Origin: Treponema sp. | Lineage (GTDB): Bacteria; Spirochaetota; Spirochaetia; Treponematales; Breznakiellaceae | DNA length: 47,180 nt | Assembly: GCA_031276815.1 (NCBI GenBank) | Contig: JAISMJ010000063.1 | Location: forward strand, 1 to 47,180 | Direction of reading: 5' to 3' | Shown here: positions 11,787 to 29,661 of the stretch, in pieces | Layout of the letters: the number at the start of each line of letters is the position of its first letter | How positions within the stretch are numbered: position 1 is the first letter of the stretch | Position numbers and translations under genes: made by a program | Notes under the pieces: generated by a model | Seen by the model: the letters and a program-made list of their open reading frames with translations, nothing else | What the model was told of the DNA's origin: nothing | Databases searched by the model: none

Positions 11787-12311
11787 GTTAGAAAGAGTAT
11801 TAATTGATATACGAAAGGCATATATCGAGTTAGAAAAAGTATGTCTTGAATTAGAGAAAAAATTTCTCGAGTTAGAAAAAGTATAACTCGAGTTAGAAAA
11901 AAAATTTCTCGAGTTAGAAAAAGTATAACTCGGGTTAGAAAAAAAATTTCTCAAGTTAGAAAAAGTATAACTCGAGTTAGAAAAAGTATAACTCGGGTTA
12001 GAAAAAGTATAACTCGAGTTAGAAAAAGTATAACTCGGGTTAGAAAAGTTATGACTCAAGTTAGAAAAAGTATGATTTGAGTTAGAAAAGTTATGACTCA
12101 AGTTAGAAAAAGTATGATTTGAGTTAGAAAAAATATAACTCAGGTTAGAAAAGTTATGACTCAAGTTAGAAAAAGTATGACTCAAGTTAGAAAAGTTATA
12201 ACTCAAGTTAGAAAAAGTATGACTTGGGTTAGAAAAAGTATGACTTGGGTTAGAAAATCCATATCGTGTGTTATAAAGATTATTACTTGAGGTACAAAAA
12301 GACTAGCGCAC
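11787..12311. repeat. 25-unit tandem array, 21-bp period, with TAACTCGAGTTA palindromes
   Basis: The unit begins GTTAGAAAAAGTATAACTC and is exactly 21 bases. Starts can be read at 11787, 11829, 11850, 11871, 11892 and onward every 21 bases to 12249, with decayed units at about 11808, 12270 and 12291, and no insertion or deletion across the readable units. Unit junctions form a 12-base palindrome, TAACTCGAGTTA or variants (TGACTCAAGTTA, TTTCTCGAGTTA). On the minus strand two frames stay open (heptads SYTFSNS and LTRVILF), but neither has a credible start. It lies about 130 bases upstream of the family pseudogene. Confidence 0.95.
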
Positions 12312-20106: not shown

Positions 20107-20418
20107 CTATGCCCGCCCGTTGATCTTGTCTTTTATTTGCTCCGCAACCGTAGCGCCGTCTTTCGTTTTTACGGCAAGCAGGAACAACCCTTTGCCTTGT
20201 GAAAGTTGCTCCCATATCTCGCCGGTGACGGCTTTTTCTTTGGAGTCTTGATTAGTGGCATAGGGTTCGCCCTTGTATTCTATGACCACTATACGCCCGT
20301 TATGAAGCCGGACTATACAATCGGGATAGAAGAAATCCGTTGACGCGGGGAGTTTGAAAGAAGCGGGATGTTTTGCTACGTTGCGAAGCCAATTTCTCTG
20401 ATACGTTTTAAGTTCCAT
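20107..20418 (-). pseudogene. Type III restriction subunit (Res) with its helicase deleted
   Basis: 103 codons. The first residues MELKTYQR match the very start of Type III Res proteins (helicase Q-motif region). From NWLRNVAKHP onward the sequence matches the extreme C-terminal PD-(D/E)XK nuclease domain: FYPDCIVRLHNGRIVVIEYKG supplies D...EYK. The ~800 residues between, which carry the helicase, are missing, so an in-frame internal deletion is inferred. The ATG lies one base beyond the mod stop codon, the usual mod-res spacing. A free-standing nuclease-domain protein could still be made, but restriction needs the helicase. Confidence 0.65.
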
Positions 20419-20563
20419 GCTACCACGCCTTTATATCATAAGGCGTTTGTTTGACGATAATGTTGTTGCTGGCGAGGTTCGGCTGGGGAAGCCGCATCGC
20501 TTCGCCATACGCGACAAGGCGGCGATACGCTATCGCCGCGCCGTCATGTACGCCCAGAACCGG

Positions 20564-21859
20564 CTACTGCGCGTCATGTTCGCGGCATACCCGCCGGTTC
20601 AGCGGCGTCTTGGTTTCGGCGGCGTAGAGAGGCGCGGCGCGATGTTCAAACGCTATATCCCGCTTTAGGCGCTGCTTATTGTCAACTACATCGCCTCCCA
20701 AGGTAAAGAAGCGGAATCCGCCGCCGCCCGTCCAGCCCACCGCTTGCGATATGCCGCCTTGCTCTCCGTCTATGACGCGCTTGAGCCGCGCGGCGCAGAG
20801 GGTTTTTGCCTGTTCGCCTATTTCCACGCCGATATACCGCCGCCCCATCTTATGAGCCACCGCGGCGGTTGTGCCGGAGCCAAGAAAACTGTCAAGCACA
20901 TAATCGCCGGGGGCGGTGGATACTTCTATGATTCTTTTTAGTAAATATTCCGGTTTAGGAGTATCACAAAGAGTATCATTACCAAACAGGGCTTTTAGTT
21001 CATCCCGTGCGTCAGCGTTATTAGAAAGTCCAATCCACATTGTTTCAGGTATGCTTCTTGCGCTTTCCTTTAAAAACAGCTTTCGGTATAGAATATCTCC
21101 TTTTACAACAAGCCGGTTTTCCGCCTCCAGCCGTTTCATAGTATCGTGACTGAGAAGCCATAGCCGCCGTGAAAACTTCTTGCCATCATGCATGGTATAT
21201 TCAAATTCAAAACAACACTGTTTTCTTGTGCATAATCCCTGTAGTCTATATACGCCGCGCTTATCATTATCAGGGTTCTTATATACGCTTCTGGTATTTT
21301 CATCAAGAACAATACGATTGATATACAATGATTGCGCCCGTTTAGCGTAACATATAATATGGTCATGCATTATACTGAAATACCGCGATGCGTTATCCTT
21401 GCCTCTTTTTTTGTGCCATAGTATATGCGCGACAAAATTATTCCGTCCAAAAATCTCATCGCATATGACTTTTATGTATGCTTGTTCATTATCGTCTAAC
21501 TGAATAAAGAGCGCCCCGTCCTCCCGCAGAAACTGCTTGAGCGTTTCAAGGCGGAGATACATCATGGAAAGCCACCGCGTATGCTCTTTATTATCGTCAT
21601 AACGCTTAAACTCGCCGCTGGTATTATACGGCGGGTCTATGTAGATGCACTTCACCTTTCCGGCATAGAAGGGCAGCAAGGCTTCCAGAGCTTCGAGGTT
21701 ATCGCCCTGTACTATCAGGTTTCCTGTACCGGGATCGCCGTAACTGAAGCGCTCTTCTTCCAGCAAAAGACGGTATTCAGCGCGGGCGGCGGCTTCAAGG
21801 TCTTCCTCTCTACCCATCCACTGTAACGTGGGCATCAAGGCGTCTTTACCGTTTGCCAT
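20564..21859 (-). CDS. mod: Type III DNA adenine methyltransferase (Mod), copy 1, C-terminally truncated
   Basis: 431 residues, beta-class N6-adenine methyltransferase. Catalytic motif DPPYNTS is at about 75-78, and the AdoMet motif DSFLGSGTTAAVAHKMGRRY is near the C-terminal third. It would methylate one strand of an asymmetric site. Compared with copy 2, the ends match closely but the middle (about 130-310, target recognition) is different. An amber stop at 20566-20564 cuts the reading frame. In the same frame beyond it homology continues to TAG at 20422-20420, but with a 126-base in-frame deletion between GGCGCGGCG repeats. Core catalytic parts remain, so activity is possible. It starts at ATG 21859 (AAGG five bases upstream); MPTLQW at 21835 is an alternative. 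Confidence 0.85.
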   Translation of the reverse strand: MANGKDALMPTLQWMGREEDLEAAARAEYRLLLEEERFSYGDPGTGNLIVQGDNLEALEALLPFYAGKVKCIYIDPPYNTSGEFKRYDDNKEHTRWLSMMYLRLETLKQFLREDGALFIQLDDNEQAYIKVICDEIFGRNNFVAHILWHKKRGKDNASRYFSIMHDHIICYAKRAQSLYINRIVLDENTRSVYKNPDNDKRGVYRLQGLCTRKQCCFEFEYTMHDGKKFSRRLWLLSHDTMKRLEAENRLVVKGDILYRKLFLKESARSIPETMWIGLSNNADARDELKALFGNDTLCDTPKPEYLLKRIIEVSTAPGDYVLDSFLGSGTTAAVAHKMGRRYIGVEIGEQAKTLCAARLKRVIDGEQGGISQAVGWTGGGGFRFFTLGGDVVDNKQRLKRDIAFEHRAAPLYAAETKTPLNRRVCREHDAQ

Positions 21860-21937
21860 ACGAACCTTCGATGCGGCTTCATCGTTCCGCGCACTATCTT
21901 TCGCGCTTTCTCTTCTTCTTCTTCGCGCTGTTCATCG

Positions 21938-22114
21938 CTATAGATCATCATCGCTATCTTCATCATCATCATCGCTATCTTCTTCTTCAGTATCATCATC
22001 ATCCTCAGTCCACTCATACCCGCACTCAGGACATTCATACTGAAAGCCGTTAAAATAGGCGCCCTCTTCTCCGCATTGGGGGCAATCAGTTGTATCAGGA
22101 AAATCTTCGCTCAT
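21938..22114 (-). CDS. Small acidic zinc-ribbon protein, copy 1 (58 residues)
   Basis: A 58-codon gene from ATG 22114 to TAG 21938, preceded by GGAG. It begins MSEDFPDTTDCPQCG, has a second knuckle ECPECGYEW, and ends in an almost purely Asp/Glu tail of about 22 residues. The four-cysteine ribbon resembles the N-terminal zinc ribbon of PhnA-type proteins, but the rest of PhnA is absent. It is paralogous to the 78-residue protein at 23915-24151. Each of the two lies immediately upstream of a Mod gene, which suggests a linked role such as a regulator, chaperone or DNA mimic; none is established. Confidence 0.75.
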   Translation of the reverse strand: MSEDFPDTTDCPQCGEEGAYFNGFQYECPECGYEWTEDDDDTEEEDSDDDDEDSDDDL

Positions 22115-22243
22115 AGTCCGCTCCTTATATCTATCATTGTTACACTATATTTCTCAAAATATCAAGCGTAGCATTGCACAACCCTCTTGCATGGTACCGG
22201 TATAAGCATATATACGCTCCGCCTGTGTTCCGCTTCCCCTACC

Positions 22244-23815
22244 CTATCGCCACGCCTTTATATCATAAGGCGTTTGTTTGAAGATAATGTTGTTGTTGGC
22301 GAGGCTCATTCGGGAAAGCCGAGTCGCTTCTCCGTACACGACAAGGCGGCGATATGCTATCGCCGCGCCGCTTTCTTGCGCGGCGGCGTCAATTGCGCGA
22401 AGGATAGCGTTGAGCGTTGCATGGGTCAGCACATTCCCGCGGTCTATCCGCGTATCTCCTGCCACGCCGTTATACAACAGCGCGTACGCCGCGCCCTCAT
22501 GCGCGCCTAAAAACGGCGAATGGGCGTCGTGTCCGCGGCATATCCGCCGGTTCAGCGGCGTCTTGGTTTCCGTGAAGTAGATATGCGCGGCGAGCTGGTC
22601 AAACGATATATCCCGCTGTATCCGCCGCTCGTCATCAAACACCGCGTCTCCTAAGGTAAAAAAGCGGAATCCGCTGCCGCCCGTCCAGCCTGCCGCTCGC
22701 GATACGCCGCCTTGCTCGCCGTCTATGACGCGCTTGAGCCGCGCGGCGCAGTGAGTCTTTGCTTGTTCGCCCGTTTCCACGCCGGTATACCGCCGCCCCA
22801 TCTTATGAGCCACCGCGGCGGTTGTGCCGGAGCCAAGAAAACTGTCAAGCACATAATCGCCGGTGGCGGCGGCAAGGGCAAGGATCCTTTGTATAAGGCG
22901 TTCAGGTTTGGGCGTGGAAAAGGGATCATCAGGAAAGAGCGCTTTGATTTCTTTTTTCGCTTCTTGATTATCTCCAACTTCATCTCTTGTCCCGATAGTG
23001 AGCGGAACAACGCCTTCTTTTACTTCCGATAGAAATTTTTTAGAACGCGGGGCATCATCGCCATGAGCGCCAAACCAGATTCTCTTATCCTTGATGAGTT
23101 CCTGCATCCGTTCTTTTGTTGTCATCCAACTTCTACTTTTAGGCGGCATACATTCTTTACCGGAGGGGCTTATTATGGGATATATACACTGTTTACGCGG
23201 CGTTTTTACATGACAGGGATGAGACGCCCGCACTCCTCGCGGGTCGTTATCAGGATTTGTATACTTTTTTAAGCTGCTTTCGGCGCGTTCCAACAAACGG
23301 GGACGCCACGTATCCTTATGTCTCGCATGACACACTATATGGTCATGATTATCGCTAAAGTATCTTGCATCGTTAGCGCGCGTATGTTTCTTTTGCCATA
23401 CTACATTCGCGACAACATTATTTCTTCCAAAAATTTCATCGCATATAACTTTCAAATAATGACTTTCATCGTCATCAATGCTTATCCATATACTCCCGTC
23501 CTCCCTCAGAAATTGCTTGAGCATTTCAAGACGGGGATACATCATGGAAAGCCAGATCGTATGCTTCTTATTATCATCATACTGCTCAAACGCGCTTCCG
23601 GTATTATACGGCGGGTCTATGCGGATGCGCTTCACGTGTCCGGCATAAAAGGGCAGCAAGGCTTTCAGAGCCTCAAGATTATCGCCCTGTACTATCAGGT
23701 TTCCCGTACCGGGATCGCCGTAACTGAAACGTTCTTCTTCCGTCAAAAGACGGTAAACAGCGCGGGAGGCGGCGGTAAGGGCTTCCTCTCTGCCCAGCCA
23801 CTGCAAAACGGGCAT
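22244..23815 (-). CDS. mod: Type III DNA adenine methyltransferase (Mod), copy 2
   Basis: 523 residues, apparently full length. DPPYNTG is at 67-70 and DSFLGSGTTAAVAHKMGRRY near residue 315. The C-terminal tail ends NNIIFKQTPYDIKAW. The N-terminal ~110 and C-terminal ~180 residues are highly similar to copy 1, while the central target-recognition part is unrelated or strongly diverged, implying a different recognition sequence. ATG 23815 has AAGGA eight bases upstream. No res gene follows this copy; the acidic zinc-ribbon copy 1 comes next instead. The arrangement reads as a tandem duplication of a zinc-ribbon-mod cassette. Confidence 0.93.
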   Translation of the reverse strand: MPVLQWLGREEALTAASRAVYRLLTEEERFSYGDPGTGNLIVQGDNLEALKALLPFYAGHVKRIRIDPPYNTGSAFEQYDDNKKHTIWLSMMYPRLEMLKQFLREDGSIWISIDDDESHYLKVICDEIFGRNNVVANVVWQKKHTRANDARYFSDNHDHIVCHARHKDTWRPRLLERAESSLKKYTNPDNDPRGVRASHPCHVKTPRKQCIYPIISPSGKECMPPKSRSWMTTKERMQELIKDKRIWFGAHGDDAPRSKKFLSEVKEGVVPLTIGTRDEVGDNQEAKKEIKALFPDDPFSTPKPERLIQRILALAAATGDYVLDSFLGSGTTAAVAHKMGRRYTGVETGEQAKTHCAARLKRVIDGEQGGVSRAAGWTGGSGFRFFTLGDAVFDDERRIQRDISFDQLAAHIYFTETKTPLNRRICRGHDAHSPFLGAHEGAAYALLYNGVAGDTRIDRGNVLTHATLNAILRAIDAAAQESGAAIAYRRLVVYGEATRLSRMSLANNNIIFKQTPYDIKAWR

Positions 23816-23914
23816 TTAGTCGTCCTTACCGTCCGCCGTACGAATATTCACTGTAGCTTCATCGTTCCACACGCTACTTTGCACTCTTTCTCTTCTTTAT
23901 TATATGATCTATTG

Positions 23915-24151
23915 CTATAGATCTTCATCTATATCTTCTTCTTCAATCACCTCCTCATCTTCTATAATATCTTCTTCAAAATCTATCACGTCATCATCCT
24001 CCTCCTTGTCCCACTCATACCCGCAATCAGGGCATTCATAATTGAAGCCGTTCACACAGACGGCTACCTGTCCGCAATTTGGGCATTCGGCTGTATCTTC
24101 AACCTTTTCCTGCCACTCATCATCATCAAACGTACCAAAATCTTTAGTCAT
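23915..24151 (-). CDS. Small acidic zinc-ribbon protein, copy 2 (78 residues)
   Basis: 78 residues: a short acidic head, a four-cysteine ribbon (ECPNCG ... ECPDCGYEWDKEE, about 22-48), and a C-terminal tail of ~30 residues that is nearly all Asp, Glu and Ile/Val. Paralogue of the 58-residue gene at 21938-22114, with about ten extra residues before the ribbon. The strong negative charge could mimic nucleic acid or bind a basic partner. AAAAGGAG lies before the ATG. It is the first gene of the minus-strand cassette leading into Mod copy 2, with about 100 bases between them. Confidence 0.85.
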   Translation of the reverse strand: MTKDFGTFDDDEWQEKVEDTAECPNCGQVAVCVNGFNYECPDCGYEWDKEEDDDVIDFEEDIIEDEEVIEEEDIDEDL

Positions 24152-24312: not shown

Positions 24313-24981
24313 TCAGGGAACAATCGCGCTTTGTATTTCGGTATAATCCCCCCGCTTGCCCGTTTCGTTCTGCCACTGCATAGCGAGGTACGCGGTCTTG
24401 CCCCGCTGCTCCTCCTCGAACTCAAGGATGTGGGGGCTGCGGGTGGCAAGTTCGGTGTGGGGAAGCTTCTTGGGGTCTTTCGGAGATGCGTCAAAGATAC
24501 CCCATGAGATAATAGCGCCGTTCATGCCGTCCGGTATGGCGCGTCTCGCGGTTCCCTCGTCATGGAAGGAGACGATGAGGCGGCGTATGCCCTTCACCTC
24601 AATATTAAAGACCGGCATGGTTTTGGGTTTGCCGATGGGCGTACGGGTGGCGTCGTGGTTAGGGATGCCCATCGCCGTGCGGTCCTCGTCCGTAACCGGC
24701 GGGAAGCGCAGGTATTGGTTCACAAACGGGCGGATCGCCTTCTTCGCCTCGTCTTTCATGTCGTTCTTCGCTTCCGTGTCCACAGGCGTATGGGGACCGA
24801 TGGTCCGCGCGTACGCCGTACTCCATGATGCGTACACATTGTCCATCGCCGTCCGCACCGCCGCGGGAATATGCGTCCACTCCGGCTCGCTTCCGCTACA
24901 CTTTTGGTTGACATACTGATTCATAAACTTGAACCACTTATCAAATTCCGTATCGCTTAATGAAAGGTAGTCCTTTCCCAT
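24313..24981 (-). CDS. Intact member of the repeated FDxWxxxMNQYV family, function unknown
   Basis: About 222 residues from ATG 24981, chosen over the ATG at 24987 because GGAGG then has an eight-base spacer and the start aligns with the 11653 copy. The N-terminal part is helical (SDTEFDKWFKFMNQYVNQKC). A linker follows, then a beta-rich C-terminal half (FNIEVKGIRRLIVSFHDEG ... LEFEEEQRGKTAYLAMQWQN) that looks like a small immunoglobulin/fibronectin-like fold. There is no signal peptide. Related copies are the pseudogene at 11390-11653 and the partial gene at 47024-47180. It is preceded by a strong promoter and a leader made of 21-bp repeats. I do not know its function. Confidence 0.85.
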   Translation of the reverse strand: MGKDYLSLSDTEFDKWFKFMNQYVNQKCSGSEPEWTHIPAAVRTAMDNVYASWSTAYARTIGPHTPVDTEAKNDMKDEAKKAIRPFVNQYLRFPPVTDEDRTAMGIPNHDATRTPIGKPKTMPVFNIEVKGIRRLIVSFHDEGTARRAIPDGMNGAIISWGIFDASPKDPKKLPHTELATRSPHILEFEEEQRGKTAYLAMQWQNETGKRGDYTEIQSAIVP

Positions 24982-25010
24982 CTCCATCTCCTCCCTTTTC
25001 CAACATAGTT

Positions 25011-25304
25011 ACAGACCTCTGTAAATGTTTTACAGACCTCTTAAAATGATCTACAGACCTCTGTAAAACATTTACAGACCTCTTAAAATCATTTACAGAC
25101 CTCTGTAAATGATTTACAGACCTCTTAAAATGATCTACAGACCTCTGTAAATGATTTACAGACCTCTTAAAATCATTTACAGACCTCTTAAAGTGATCTA
25201 CAGACCTCTGTAAATGTTTTACAAAAATCTTTCAAAGAATCACAGCCTTCTATGGACGCTCTATAAAAAAATTAACGTGATCTGTAGACCGCTTATGAAG
25301 CATT
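25011..25304. repeat. 14-unit tandem array, 21-bp period, of TTTACAGACCTCTGTAAA palindromes
   Basis: ACAGACCTCT begins at 25011, 25032, 25053, 25074, 25095, 25116, 25137, 25158, 25179 and 25200, exactly every 21 bases. Decayed but in-phase units follow at 25221, 25242, 25263 and 25284. About half the good units complete an 18-base perfect dyad, TTTACAGA-CC-TCTGTAAA; the others end TCTTAAAA. The array ends on the -10 box of the promoter driving the family gene, so it would be transcribed as a ~300-base leader. One minus-strand frame is open (heptads like RSVNDFK) but has no start codon. Confidence 0.97.
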
Positions 25305-25378: not shown

Positions 25379-25562
25379 GCGGAAATGGCGCGGAGCGTTG
25401 TTCATCGCCGCCCGGTTTCGCGGCGATAGAGCGCGGCGTAGTGTATATGCAGCTTGACATTGTTTCGGATAGCAGGTATCCTATAACGGTCGTGTAATCG
25501 GGACACATGCGGGCAAGCGCAGCCCAACCCCGCCATGTTCGGAAGAAAGCGGTGGTCAGCGG
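25379..25562 (+). repeat. Degenerate direct repeat of the SRP RNA locus (left copy)
   Basis: This segment matches 28052-28236 over its whole length with scattered mismatches. It includes a coding-like tail (GCGGAAA...GCGTTGTTCA.CGCCGCC), the promoter (TTGACA 25454-25459, 17 bases, TATCCT 25477-25482) and the SRP RNA 5' half. The copies lie 2,673 bases apart in the same orientation and bracket the ATPase/HNH pair. Confidence 0.85.
25489..25562 (+). pseudogene. Truncated SRP (4.5S) RNA copy
   Basis: Aligned with the intact RNA at 28162, it keeps GTGTAATCGGG, the segment GCGGGCAAGCGC.GCCCAACCCCGCCA and the GGAA-tetraloop arm (GTTCGGAAGAAAGC). It has substitutions in the Ffh-binding internal loop (AGCAACGG to AGCGGTGG). 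Homology ends near 25562, and the 3' strand that should close the terminal helix (GATTACAAGGC) is missing, so it cannot form the normal end helix. The promoter boxes are retained, so it may still be transcribed. Confidence 0.8.
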
Positions 25563-26004
25563 GCAATGAAACAAGCGCTCTAGGGGTACGGCAAAGAGGG
25601 TATAACCCGCGTACCGTGAAGCTGCGGCGGCTTATAGCGTATGATAGGATACACAGAGCATGAATACGGTTGATGCGCCTATCCGCGCCTGTCGGGACGG
25701 CGCTTTCTACGGGCGGGACAAAGACGGCTGGTCTAAACGGCTCATGCGGGCGTTCCTCACAACCTATGCGCCCTGTGATCGCGAATTCCGCATGGCCGGG
25801 CTTTGGAAAGACGCGCTCGTGTACCGCCTCCTATCATTCATGCTATGAAGGATAGGGAACGCCGATCCCGCTTGTATAGATGGCATATCATGCTAAAAGA
25901 ACCGGAGGACCTATGGCGACCGCTACCCGCCCCTATAGAAACCATATCCGCGATCAAGACGCCGCTCGCGCTACGAGCGCGAGAGATAGTAAGGGGACGC
26001 GGCT
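25563..26004. other. Interval between the SRP RNA relic and the ATPase gene
   Basis: No gene can be supported. A 62-codon frame (25660-25848) reads GRDKDGWSKRLMRAFLTTYA... but has no clear ribosome binding site and no recognised family; it could be a remnant. The last bases contain AAGGGG, the ribosome binding site of the ATPase gene. Confidence 0.3.
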
Positions 26005-27213
26005 ATGAACAATCTCTTTATTACCAAAATCATGATAGATGCGCTGCGTCATGTATCCGGTTTAGCGATTCCACTATCGGAACATGAGCGCAAACATCTT
26101 ATACTGACCGGCAAAAATGGCAGCGGAAAAACGACTTTGCTTGAAACTATGCGTGATTATATGAGGCGTCCCTCGTTTTGTCGTGACGCGGACGGCTCCG
26201 CGTATCTCTCTGATCCCACGGGAACACAAAAGCCGGAAATCCACGGTATGAATACATCCGAAGAAGCTTTTCTTTCCCCCCATAATAAAACAGCCGGCGC
26301 TATACGCATATATGTCAACGCTCCTGACGGGCAACCCGTTCACGGCGTATTCAATGATACTCTGGTCGTGTATATTTCCGCCCACCGGTTACTGACCATT
26401 CCTGTTGCAAAGGCAATCGAAAGAGTCGACGCCGGTACGCATGTCCCCCTTGATGCGGATCTCAGCTCCGGTTTTCTACAATACATGCTGTATTTGGATT
26501 ATCAGAAGTTATCCGCCGCAAGTGAAGGGAACCATGCGACCGAGTCCCGCATAGCGCAATGGTTTGACCGTTTTTTACAAACCCTGCGTGAGGTGTACGG
26601 CTGTCCGGCTCTTGCGTTAAAAAAAGAAGCGAAGGACCTTAATTTCAATATAGTCATGCCGGACCGCGAACCGTTCAGCTTACAGCACATGGCAGACGGC
26701 TATTCCGCCCTTCTTAAAATCGTCATGGAACTGATAATGCGTATGGAACATCAGGCGCATACTGCCTATGATATGCCGGGTATCGTGCTGATAGACGAAC
26801 TTGAGGCTCATCTGCATATTGAACTACAAAAAAAAGTGCTGCCCTTCCTGACCGGTATGTTTCCTAATATCCAATTTATCATAAGCACTCATTCCCCCTT
26901 TGTGATTAGTTCTATTGACAAAGCAGTCATCTATGATCTGGAACATCAACAGCGTTTGGAAGACTTGAGCGCTTATTCCTACGAAGGGATCGTTGAATAC
27001 TATTTTAATACGGATATGTATTCTGATAAAATAAAGAGCCGGTTTGAACGGTATAAAGCATTGATAGCGAAGATACGCCGGACACCGGAAGAAAACGATG
27101 AGCTTGTTGAACTTATCGTCTATCTCAAGCAAATTCCTCCCGCCGCCGCTTCAGAATTGATATATTCTTTTCGGGAACTGGAACGGCAAAGGAAAGATAC
27201 GGCTCATGGTTAA
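26005..27213 (+). CDS. AAA/ABC-type ATPase of a Septu-like (PtuA) defence pair
   Basis: 402 residues of the OLD/RecF-like ABC ATPase group. Walker A GKNGSGKTT is at about 36-44, a signature-like ADGYSALLKIV comes before Walker B, Walker B GIVLIDELEAH is at 259-269, and H296 lies in the switch segment ISTHSPFVI. Such ATPases pair with HNH nucleases in the Septu (PtuA-PtuB) anti-phage system, where the ATPase forms the scaffold and nucleotide sensor. The following gene overlaps by eight bases and encodes an HNH protein, which is why Septu is proposed. No reverse transcriptase is nearby, so a retron form is unlikely. ATG 26005 follows AAGGGG by eight bases. Confidence 0.8.
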   Translation: MNNLFITKIMIDALRHVSGLAIPLSEHERKHLILTGKNGSGKTTLLETMRDYMRRPSFCRDADGSAYLSDPTGTQKPEIHGMNTSEEAFLSPHNKTAGAIRIYVNAPDGQPVHGVFNDTLVVYISAHRLLTIPVAKAIERVDAGTHVPLDADLSSGFLQYMLYLDYQKLSAASEGNHATESRIAQWFDRFLQTLREVYGCPALALKKEAKDLNFNIVMPDREPFSLQHMADGYSALLKIVMELIMRMEHQAHTAYDMPGIVLIDELEAHLHIELQKKVLPFLTGMFPNIQFIISTHSPFVISSIDKAVIYDLEHQQRLEDLSAYSYEGIVEYYFNTDMYSDKIKSRFERYKALIAKIRRTPEENDELVELIVYLKQIPPAAASELIYSFRELERQRKDTAHG

Positions 27214-27853
27214 GCTGCATAAGTCACCTCTTCCCGTTGGCGTTACCATTAAATCCGGGTTGGACTATCGCAAGGAGCCGGTCTTCTCAATAATCAAAGA
27301 CGATTGTAACAATAAATGCTATATATGCGAAGAAAAGGGAACTACAAGTATGCATGTGGAGCATCGTGTTTCGCAATCATTCGATCCGTCCCGTAAATAT
27401 GACTGGAACAATTTGTTGCTAAGTTGCGGTCATTGCAATCGCGTCAAGGGGAGCCGTTACAATACGATACTTGACTGTACGCGAGTTGATCCGGAAGCGT
27501 ATATCTCCCTGCGTATCGCAATAGGATTGTATGAAAGAGTAACGGTCATCAAAATAGGAGAGCGTGACGGCGTTGATGAGACAATACGGCTGCTTGATAC
27601 CGTATACAACGGCGAATCAACCGCTATATTGAAATATGAATGTAAAAATCTGCGCGCCCATGTACTTGCCGAAGTACAAACATTCCAGCAGTTGCTTGAC
27701 GGATACTTTGAAGAGAACGATACGGCTCTTAAAGAGGCTTTCCAGAGAAAAATCAGCGAAAGCATTAGTCGCGCTTCCAATTTCGCCTCTTTTAAGAGGG
27801 GCATAATCAAGAATAATGATACCTTGTTTGCATTATTCAAAGACACGCTATAA
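27206..27853 (+). CDS. HNH endonuclease of a Septu-like (PtuB) defence pair
   Basis: 215 residues. The HNH core is CYIC (C38, C41), then MHVEHRV (E52, H53), DWNNLLLSC (N69) and CGHC (C74, C77) before NRVKGS, i.e. zinc cysteines framing the beta-beta-alpha metal nuclease. The N-terminus (VKLHKSPLP) and the WNNLLLSC...KG block resemble the HNH proteins associated with PtuA-type ATPases. The C-terminal ~100 residues are helical, with an RAHVLAEVQTF stretch. The eight-base overlap with the ATPase stop codon indicates coupled translation. The target, phage DNA or host nucleic acid, cannot be read from sequence. Confidence 0.82.
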   Translation: MVKLHKSPLPVGVTIKSGLDYRKEPVFSIIKDDCNNKCYICEEKGTTSMHVEHRVSQSFDPSRKYDWNNLLLSCGHCNRVKGSRYNTILDCTRVDPEAYISLRIAIGLYERVTVIKIGERDGVDETIRLLDTVYNGESTAILKYECKNLRAHVLAEVQTFQQLLDGYFEENDTALKEAFQRKISESISRASNFASFKRGIIKNNDTLFALFKDTL

Positions 27854-27931
27854 TTGCGAACCCATCGCGGAACAAACGCTCTATAGTCGCCGTCAAGCAA
27901 TCGTTATATCCACAGAACATACCGCTACTAG

Positions 27932-28096
27932 GTGGTTCTATCCTATACTAACAAGAAACGCGCCGCTGTAGCGGAGGTACAGGATGAGATTGATAAGCCC
28001 GCTATGGTCATTACAAAGCGCTTTGTATATGAATTGGCGGGGATCAAGCCCGCGGAAACGGCGCGGGGCGTTGTTCACCGCCGCCTGTTTTTGTAA
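27932..28096 (+). pseudogene. Possible 3' end of an unidentified gene next to the SRP RNA
   Basis: A 54-codon frame with natural-looking protein sequence (AEVQDEIDKPAMVITKRF, then ELAGIKPAETARGVVHRR) and a stop at 28094. It lacks an ATG; a GTG at 27932 directly follows an in-frame stop. The last third lies inside the direct repeat, and the left repeat preserves the same frame (AEMARSVVHRR). It may be the tail of a gene that once preceded the SRP RNA and was broken by the event that inserted the ATPase/HNH pair. Confidence 0.35.
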
Positions 28097-28236
28097 CAGT
28101 AGGGCGCGGCGTACCGTTTCCGCCGCTTGACATTTTTTTGGATAGCCGCTATAGTATAACAGCCTTGTAATCGGGAAACATGCGGGCAAGCGCCGCCCAA
28201 CCCCGCCAGGTTCGGAAGGAAGCAACGGTCAGCGGA
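28052..28236 (+). repeat. Direct repeat of the SRP RNA locus (right, intact copy)
   Basis: The intact counterpart of 25379-25562, covering the preceding coding-like tail, the promoter and the 5' two-thirds of the SRP RNA. Homology stops within the RNA gene, so the junction lies in the structural gene. Confidence 0.85.
28127..28155 (+). promoter_or_regulatory. SRP RNA promoter
   Basis: TTGACA (28127-28132), a 17-base spacer and TATAGT (28150-28155), seven bases before the predicted RNA 5' end at 28162. Confidence 0.85.
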
Positions 28237-28276
28237 GGCTTGCAGCGCCGTGTCCATCTTGATTACAAGGCTTTTT
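28162..28276 (+). ncRNA. ffs: Signal recognition particle 4.5S RNA with terminator
   Basis: A ~110-base small bacterial SRP RNA. The ends pair perfectly: GCCTTGTAATC (28162-28172) with GATTACAAGGC (28261-28271). The apical arm has the conserved GGAA tetraloop and internal loop (CCAGGTTCGGAAGGAAGCAA, 28205-28224) that bind Ffh. The closing helix is followed at once by TTTTTT, so it doubles as an intrinsic terminator. It sits upstream of dnaX, a common arrangement. Confidence 0.95.
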
Positions 28277-28293
28277 TATGCTATACTGGATAC

Positions 28294-29661
28294 ATGGCTT
28301 ACGAAGTTACCGCCACACGCCGAAGACCGAAAACCTTTGACGAATTGGCAGGTCAAGAATTTGTCGCGGCTACTCTGAAGAATTCCTTGGAAACAGGGCG
28401 TATCGCCCATGCGTACCTCTTTACCGGACCCCGCGGGTGCGGCAAGACGAGCAGCGCGCGTATTCTTGCGCGTTCCCTTAACTGCGTGAAGGGTCCTACT
28501 TCATCGCCCTGCGGCGAGTGCGCCGGCTGCCGCGAAATAGCCGAAGGGCGAAGCCTCGACGTTATCGAAATAGACGGCGCGTCAAACACCGGCGTTAATG
28601 ACGCGCGGCAAATTATAGAAGAAGTTCTGTTCCCCCCCAATTCGAGCCGTTATAAAATATATATTATTGATGAAGTGCACATGCTCTCAAACAGCGCGTT
28701 TAACGCCCTTCTGAAAACTATTGAAGAACCGCCCCCGTATGTCGTTTTTATTTTCGCTACAACGGAACTTCACAAGGTGCCTGCCACCATTAAAAGCCGG
28801 TGCCAGCAGTTCGCGTTCCGCCTCATCCCCCTCGAAACCATTGCCGGTATTCTCAAAAAAACGTGTGAAGAGATGCGGATACAGGCGGAAGACGAAGCCT
28901 TGTTCTGGATCGCCCGCGAATCAACCGGCAGCCTCCGCGATGCGTATACTTTGTTCGATCAGGTCGTTTCGTTTTCAGACGGGCATCTCCGCTCCGCGTT
29001 TATCAGAGAGAAGCTGGGACTCGTGGGCATAGATAACCTCAATGCGCTTGCAATAGCCTGTATTGAACATGACCGGAAGAAAGCCCTGCTCCTCCTTGAC
29101 GATATGCTGAACGCCGGCGTTGCCATTGAACAGTTTGTTATTGATATGGCGGGTTTTTACCATAGCCTTCTCCTCTTGAAAGCCGGCGTCAGGAAGGAGT
29201 CCCTTTTGTCGGACAACCCCGCCCGTTTTTCGGAACAGGTGCTGCGCGCGCTCAATGCGGAGCAAATCGAGCGCGCGTTGGATGTGCTTCTTGATTTGTA
29301 TCGCGATATACGCTATTCTATTTCTCCGCGGTTCGAGCTTGAAACCGTTGTGTCAAAACTCTGCGCGCTTGACAAATGGGTATCGCCGCTTGAGTTACGC
29401 GCCGTCATTGCCCGCGCGCGGGAAGCGCTGGGGGGGCGAAGCGCCGCGGACGGCGAGGGAGCGCGGAGCGGACAGGCTGGCGGCACTCCTGTGGAACGCG
29501 GACATGCTGGCGGGGACTCGCCGCGGGAATCCTTGAGCGAAGGCTTCAAGCGCTACCTTGAGAAGCGCGAGACGGCTCGTGAAGACCATGCGCCTGTTCG
29601 GAACATTTCTCCTCAAGTGGAACGAGTCTTGAGGATATTTAATGGAACTATAGTGGAGTAA
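28294..29661 (+). CDS. dnaX: DNA polymerase III subunits gamma/tau
   Basis: 455 residues from ATG 28294, where the conserved MAYEVTATRRRPKTFDELAGQ start lies; a longer frame would overlap the SRP RNA and is rejected. Walker A GPRGCGKT is at 45-52, the zinc site is C64, C73, C76 and C79, and the Walker B/DEVH region (IIDEVHMLS) is near residue 127. It is the clamp-loader ATPase. After the collar domain there is a Gly/Ala/Arg-rich linker (about 385-425) and a short tail, so the tau-specific region is reduced. It heads the unit dnaX-ybaB-recR. Confidence 0.97.
   Translation: MAYEVTATRRRPKTFDELAGQEFVAATLKNSLETGRIAHAYLFTGPRGCGKTSSARILARSLNCVKGPTSSPCGECAGCREIAEGRSLDVIEIDGASNTGVNDARQIIEEVLFPPNSSRYKIYIIDEVHMLSNSAFNALLKTIEEPPPYVVFIFATTELHKVPATIKSRCQQFAFRLIPLETIAGILKKTCEEMRIQAEDEALFWIARESTGSLRDAYTLFDQVVSFSDGHLRSAFIREKLGLVGIDNLNALAIACIEHDRKKALLLLDDMLNAGVAIEQFVIDMAGFYHSLLLLKAGVRKESLLSDNPARFSEQVLRALNAEQIERALDVLLDLYRDIRYSISPRFELETVVSKLCALDKWVSPLELRAVIARAREALGGRSAADGEGARSGQAGGTPVERGHAGGDSPRESLSEGFKRYLEKRETAREDHAPVRNISPQVERVLRIFNGTIVE

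What the first reader, a model, noticed from the sequence alone, without database searches (positions are those of the whole stretch)
25379..28276. Septu-like ATPase/HNH pair bracketed by a duplicated SRP RNA locus
A degenerate, 3'-truncated copy of the SRP RNA with its promoter lies 2.67 kb before the intact one in the same orientation, and the ATPase/HNH pair lies between. This mirrors islands that integrate in tRNA genes and rebuild one intact copy. SRP RNA as a landing or duplication site for a defence cassette would be unusual. No integrase is visible in the interval.
Basis: partly seen in the sequence, partly recalled or inferred. Interest (0 to 1): 0.75.

Follow-up and report, generated by a model that had tools for sequence, protein, structure and literature searches.

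The report
Septu defence pair beside broken SRP-RNA copy
A known type of two-gene antiviral system (Septu) sits between a decayed partial copy and the working copy of a housekeeping RNA gene; the copies look like a local duplication in this one lineage, not a recognised docking site for mobile defence genes, so the find is mostly ordinary.

Summary
A 184-nt direct repeat (25379-25562 and 28052-28235, 81.5% identical, no gaps) carries 117 bp of upstream DNA with the promoter and the first 67 nt of the SRP RNA gene ffs. Copy 2 is the intact ffs ahead of dnaX; copy 1 is a 3'-truncated pseudogene. Between them lies an intact Septu type I operon (ptuA 26005-27213, ptuB 27206-27853) plus at least one dead restriction-gene fragment. 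The island-integration reading is not supported. There is no integrase. The displaced piece is the promoter and 5' part of the gene, the opposite end from classic tRNA-gene islands. The two copies are each other's closest relatives. None of eight genus mates with ffs has a second copy, and gene order is scrambled on both sides of ffs-dnaX-ybaB-recR, so no empty site can be defined. The same 8-kb stretch holds a second duplication (type III methyltransferase genes) and a type III restriction-gene relic. Best reading: a decaying defence-gene region with a lineage-specific partial duplication of ffs. The truncated copy lost its terminator and its promoter is the only sigma70-like match ahead of ptuA on that strand, so it may drive the operon (untested).

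The parts
25379..25562 (+). copy 1: decayed duplicate of ffs upstream region + promoter + first 67 nt of ffs; no 3' part and no terminator
   Evidence: 81.5% identity to 28052-28235; only 15 bits to SRP families; 10 changes on copy 1 alone against 2 on copy 2
25454..25482 (+). sigma70-like promoter of copy 1 (TTGACA-17-TATCCT), candidate promoter of ptuAB
   Evidence: consensus scan: only + strand match between 25200 and the ptuA start; hexamers compared with copy 2
25660..25812 (+). relic of the N-terminus of a large Mrr-type nuclease/ResIII helicase (type ISP-like) restriction gene
   Evidence: 33-46% identity in register with N-termini in several genomes; 42.7 bits against at most 26.2 for 2000 shuffles; intact homologue has Mrr_cat_2 + ResIII
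26005..27213 (+). ptuA, Septu ATPase, 402 aa
   Evidence: PADLOC PtuA1 E 7e-98 over 4-399; Walker A and B motifs conserved
27206..27853 (+). ptuB, Septu HNH nuclease, 215 aa, overlaps ptuA by 8 nt
   Evidence: PADLOC PtuB1 E 2e-46; Pfam HNH; HNH and Cys residues invariant
27938..28057 (+). possible relic of a DUF1016/YhcG nuclease (weak)
   Evidence: 40% and 35% identity to two YhcG-family proteins, but a YhcG profile gives no support
28052..28235 (+). copy 2 of the repeat, reaching into intact ffs
28169..28267 (+). intact ffs (small bacterial SRP RNA), followed by its terminator-like end
   Evidence: RF00169, 53.8 bits
28297..29661 (+). dnaX, first gene of the conserved ffs-dnaX-ybaB-recR block
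   Evidence: NCBIfam PRK06647/TIGR02397; block shared with relatives

Best explanation
The interval is part of a decaying defence-gene region of about 8 kb (20.1-28.1 kb). It holds an intact Septu type I operon, flanked by a partial duplication of the ffs promoter and 5' end that arose within this lineage. Most likely a local, homology-driven duplication or insertion event (no site-specific recombinase needed) left a copy of the ffs 5' region upstream of the defence genes; the downstream copy kept the SRP RNA function and the upstream copy decayed. PtuA and PtuB should act as in other Septu systems: an ATPase complex that, once triggered by phage infection, licenses the HNH nuclease PtuB (tRNA-Tyr cleavage has been shown for an E. 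coli Septu). Because the upstream copy lacks the terminator and holds the only sigma70-like match ahead of ptuA on that strand, its promoter may also transcribe ptuAB. Shown here: repeat, decay of copy 1, sister relationship of the copies, intact PtuAB motifs, one clear relic gene. Inferred: the duplication route, antiphage activity, transcription from the ffs promoter.
For: Repeat and decay. Copies share 8 derived bases and form a clade, support 91. Genus mates: single ffs, no ptuA. PtuA/PtuB identity and intact motifs. Dead defence genes nearby: restriction relic 25660-25812, type III REase C-terminal piece 20107-20418, two type III methyltransferase paralogues as a second local duplication, 77-88% identical pieces. 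ptuAB GC3 0.47 against 0.59-0.63 for dnaX and recR. Another genome of the family (G144) has a tandem duplication of ffs with its neighbour, a fabD-like gene, and no cargo. Mechanism of Septu: PMC13096335.
Against: No junction-level proof of the duplication route. The G144 case includes a run of N, so it could be an assembly effect. The same layout would arise from single-crossover integration of a circle carrying ptuAB and a fragment of ffs from a close relative. GC differs among neighbouring genes too, so foreign origin of ptuAB rests mainly on its absence in genus mates.
Confidence: 0.6

Rival explanations
1. Single-crossover (Campbell-type) homologous integration of a non-replicating circle that carried ptuAB and a piece of the ffs 5' region from the same or a very close lineage.
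For: Geometry fits: the shared block bounds the cargo on both sides and one copy stays intact; cargo absent from genus mates and lower in GC3 than dnaX and recR.
Against: Needs a circle that already held a host ffs fragment next to defence genes; no plasmid or phage genes were recognised in the interval; the copies are sisters, so the donor must be of the same lineage.
Confidence: 0.2
2. Integrase-driven island using ffs as attachment site, as proposed by the first reader.
For: Cargo lies between a gene fragment and an intact gene; defence genes are common island cargo (general knowledge).
Against: No integrase; wrong end of the gene displaced; repeat extends 117 bp outside the gene; no other example among relatives or at other Septu loci checked.
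Confidence: 0.05
3. Old tandem duplication of a longer ffs-containing segment, later replaced or interrupted by defence genes one after another, so that the Septu pair is incidental.
For: 23% divergence in the 117 bp upstream shows it is not recent; G144 has tandem ffs duplication without cargo; the neighbouring methyltransferase genes are duplicated too.
Against: No convincing trace of further duplicated sequence beyond the 184 nt on either side.
Confidence: 0.15

Closest known systems
Septu type I (PtuA/PtuB)
   Same: PtuA1 and PtuB1 profile matches over nearly full length, intact Walker A/B and HNH motifs, two overlapping genes in ptuA-ptuB order
   Different: Nothing essential; only the genomic setting next to a decayed ffs copy
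Retron I-A (Ec78/Eco7) PtuAB effectors
   Same: PtuA is a sequence relative of solved retron PtuA chains, E down to 5e-17
   Different: No reverse transcriptase in the neighbourhood; the genome's one PF00078 match is on another contig, C129
tRNA/tmRNA-gene genomic islands (Islander type, PMC4383910, abstract)
   Same: cargo between a gene fragment and an intact gene
   Different: no integrase, 5' rather than 3' fragment, repeat reaching outside the gene, no further examples

Membership tests
Septu type I | PtuA-type ATPase | tested here: met
   PADLOC PtuA1 326.7 bits, residues 4-399
Septu type I | PtuB-type HNH nuclease encoded beside it | tested here: met
   PADLOC PtuB1 156 bits, residues 4-212; ORFs overlap by 8 nt
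Septu type I | intact Walker A/B and HNH residues | tested here: met
   GKNGSGKT and VLIDELEAHLH in PtuA; VEH, WNN and the CxxC pairs in PtuB, conserved among relatives
Septu type I | not part of a retron (no reverse transcriptase or msr-msd beside it) | tested here: met
   only PF00078 match of the genome is on contig C129; no retron RNA family match in the interval
Septu type I | antiphage activity | not testable with these tools
   needs experiment
integrase-type genomic island in an RNA gene | integrase gene in the element | tested here: not met
   no such ORF seen between the copies; Pfam hits of the two large ORFs there are AAA and HNH
integrase-type genomic island in an RNA gene | displaced fragment is the 3' end, repeat lies within the gene | tested here: not met
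   repeat is promoter + 5' 67 nt, starting 117 bp upstream
integrase-type genomic island in an RNA gene | empty site in relatives | tested here: inconclusive
   single ffs in 8 genus mates, but no shared upstream flank
integrase-type genomic island in an RNA gene | other cargo at the same site elsewhere | tested here: not met
   no fragment plus intact ffs pair with cargo found among 200 family genomes, within the limits of blastn and of the listed matches

The most novel reading that the evidence does not exclude
Promoter capture: duplication of the housekeeping ffs promoter, cut off before its terminator, placed ptuAB under SRP RNA transcription and gave the operon a roughly 500-nt leader that begins with a broken SRP RNA.
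Probability: 0.2. Interest if true: 0.45.

Novelty: new member of a known kind. Interest (0 to 1): 0.22.

Why it matters
It shows how a housekeeping RNA gene can look like an integration site when it has merely been duplicated next to defence genes, and gives a caution for calling hotspots from one genome. If promoter capture were shown, it would be a simple route by which a newly gained defence operon obtains expression.

Tried and rejected
Island/att model: rejected on polarity, missing integrase and missing parallels. Copy 1 as a functional or variant SRP RNA: rejected, only 15 bits to SRP models, folding no better than shuffles, and changes in the loop that (general knowledge) Ffh binds. 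Weak second ffs matches in G005, G007, G011, G140 and others: about 19-35 nt, treated as chance. Several genomes with two ffs on separate contigs (G013, G029, G124, G151, G121, G213, G218): not resolved, may be mixed assemblies. Literature on ffs or SRP RNA as an integration site: four searches gave nothing relevant in the held library (one search checked one false lead). YhcG relic: two BLAST hits, but the family profile did not support it, so kept only as possible. No structure prediction was run, since sequence profiles already settle PtuA and PtuB.

Full report
The repeat is real. Positions 25379-25562 and 28052-28235 align without gaps at 81.5% identity, far above shuffled sequence. The block has 117 bp of upstream DNA including a TTGACA-17 nt promoter, then the first 67 nt of ffs. 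Copy 2 continues into an intact SRP RNA (RF00169, 53.8 bits) and then dnaX. Copy 1 stops at nt 67, keeps no terminator, and is barely recognised by SRP models (15 bits).

Copy 1 is a pseudogene. Against six relatives, 10 sites changed only in copy 1, 2 only in copy 2, and 8 are derived in both; the two copies form a clade with support 91. The alignment is short (about 116 columns), so this is good but not overwhelming evidence that the duplication happened after this lineage split from the sampled relatives. It is not recent: the upstream part differs at 23% of sites. None of copy 1's own ffs changes is shared by copy 2, and several lie in the internal loop that, from general knowledge, binds Ffh.

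Between the copies lie ptuA and ptuB, which overlap by 8 nt. Both match PADLOC Septu profiles over nearly their full length, keep the catalytic motifs, and PtuA is a relative of solved retron PtuA proteins. No reverse transcriptase is near; the only one in the genome is on another contig. This is a Septu type I system. Published work shows that an E. coli Septu cleaves tRNA-Tyr upon infection and needs both the ATPase and HNH motifs (PMC13096335); the same action here is inference.

The interval also holds a dead gene. Codons from 25660 to 25812 match the first 51 or so residues of large nuclease-helicase restriction proteins in several genomes of the family (shuffle control). A second relic at 27938-28057, similar to DUF1016/YhcG proteins, is weak. 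To the left, on the minus strand, are two type III methyltransferase genes that are themselves a local duplication (77-88% identical pieces) and the last tenth of a type III restriction subunit. So 20.1-28.1 kb is a region of living and dead defence genes with two separate local duplications of similar divergence.

The hotspot idea was tested in relatives. Of 11 genus mates, 8 have a recoverable ffs, all single and all directly before dnaX; the dnaX-ybaB-recR block follows wherever the contig reaches far enough; 3 assemblies lack ffs. None of the 11 has ptuA. Upstream neighbours differ in every genome that has any, and downstream neighbours beyond recR differ too, except that three genomes share one gene. 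Gene order is therefore scrambled generally, and variation upstream of ffs is no sign of a hotspot. Across 200 family genomes no further fragment-plus-intact pair with cargo was seen, though blastn would miss strongly decayed pieces and only the best matches are listed. One genome, G144, has a tandem duplication of ffs with a fabD-like gene, with a run of N inside. Septu loci from other genomes have no SRP RNA within the fetched flanks.

An island in an RNA gene should carry an integrase, displace the 3' end and confine the repeat to the gene. None of these holds. I conclude that an ordinary Septu system lies next to a lineage-specific, decayed partial duplication of ffs. The one reading of modest interest left open is that the truncated copy's promoter transcribes ptuAB: it is the only + strand sigma70-like match from 25200 to the ptuA start, and no terminator-like site or T run lies between. 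The hexamers are no better kept than chance would allow (2 changes in 12 against 18% overall), so selection on the promoter is not shown.

Noticed in passing
window 25009-25223; G000 contig C126 8172-8409: 21-bp tandem repeat array (TTACAGACCTCTGTAAATGAT type) between genes, with a related array on another contig; a different 21-bp array lies at window 11825-12257.
   Followed up: partly
window 20423-24097, minus strand: Two type III methyltransferase genes are a tandem local duplication (77-88% identical pieces), followed by only the C-terminal tenth of a type III restriction subunit at 20107-20418.
   Followed up: partly
L112 (G144 contig C18), copies near 29000 and 30133: Tandem duplication of ffs plus a fabD-like gene, 93% identical over 1.03 kb, with a run of N between; could be real or an assembly effect.
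   Followed up: partly
G013, G029, G124, G151, G121, G213, G218: Two full ffs matches on different contigs of one assembly; second SRP RNA genes or mixed assemblies.
   Followed up: no
window 24313-24987, minus strand: 224-aa ORF with no match in Pfam, NCBIfam, PHROGs or PADLOC, behind a perfect-consensus sigma70-like promoter match at 25331-25302.
   Followed up: partly
L115 (G214 contig C42), just upstream of ffs: An IS1-type transposase gene (PF03400) lies directly upstream of ffs in this relative.
   Followed up: no
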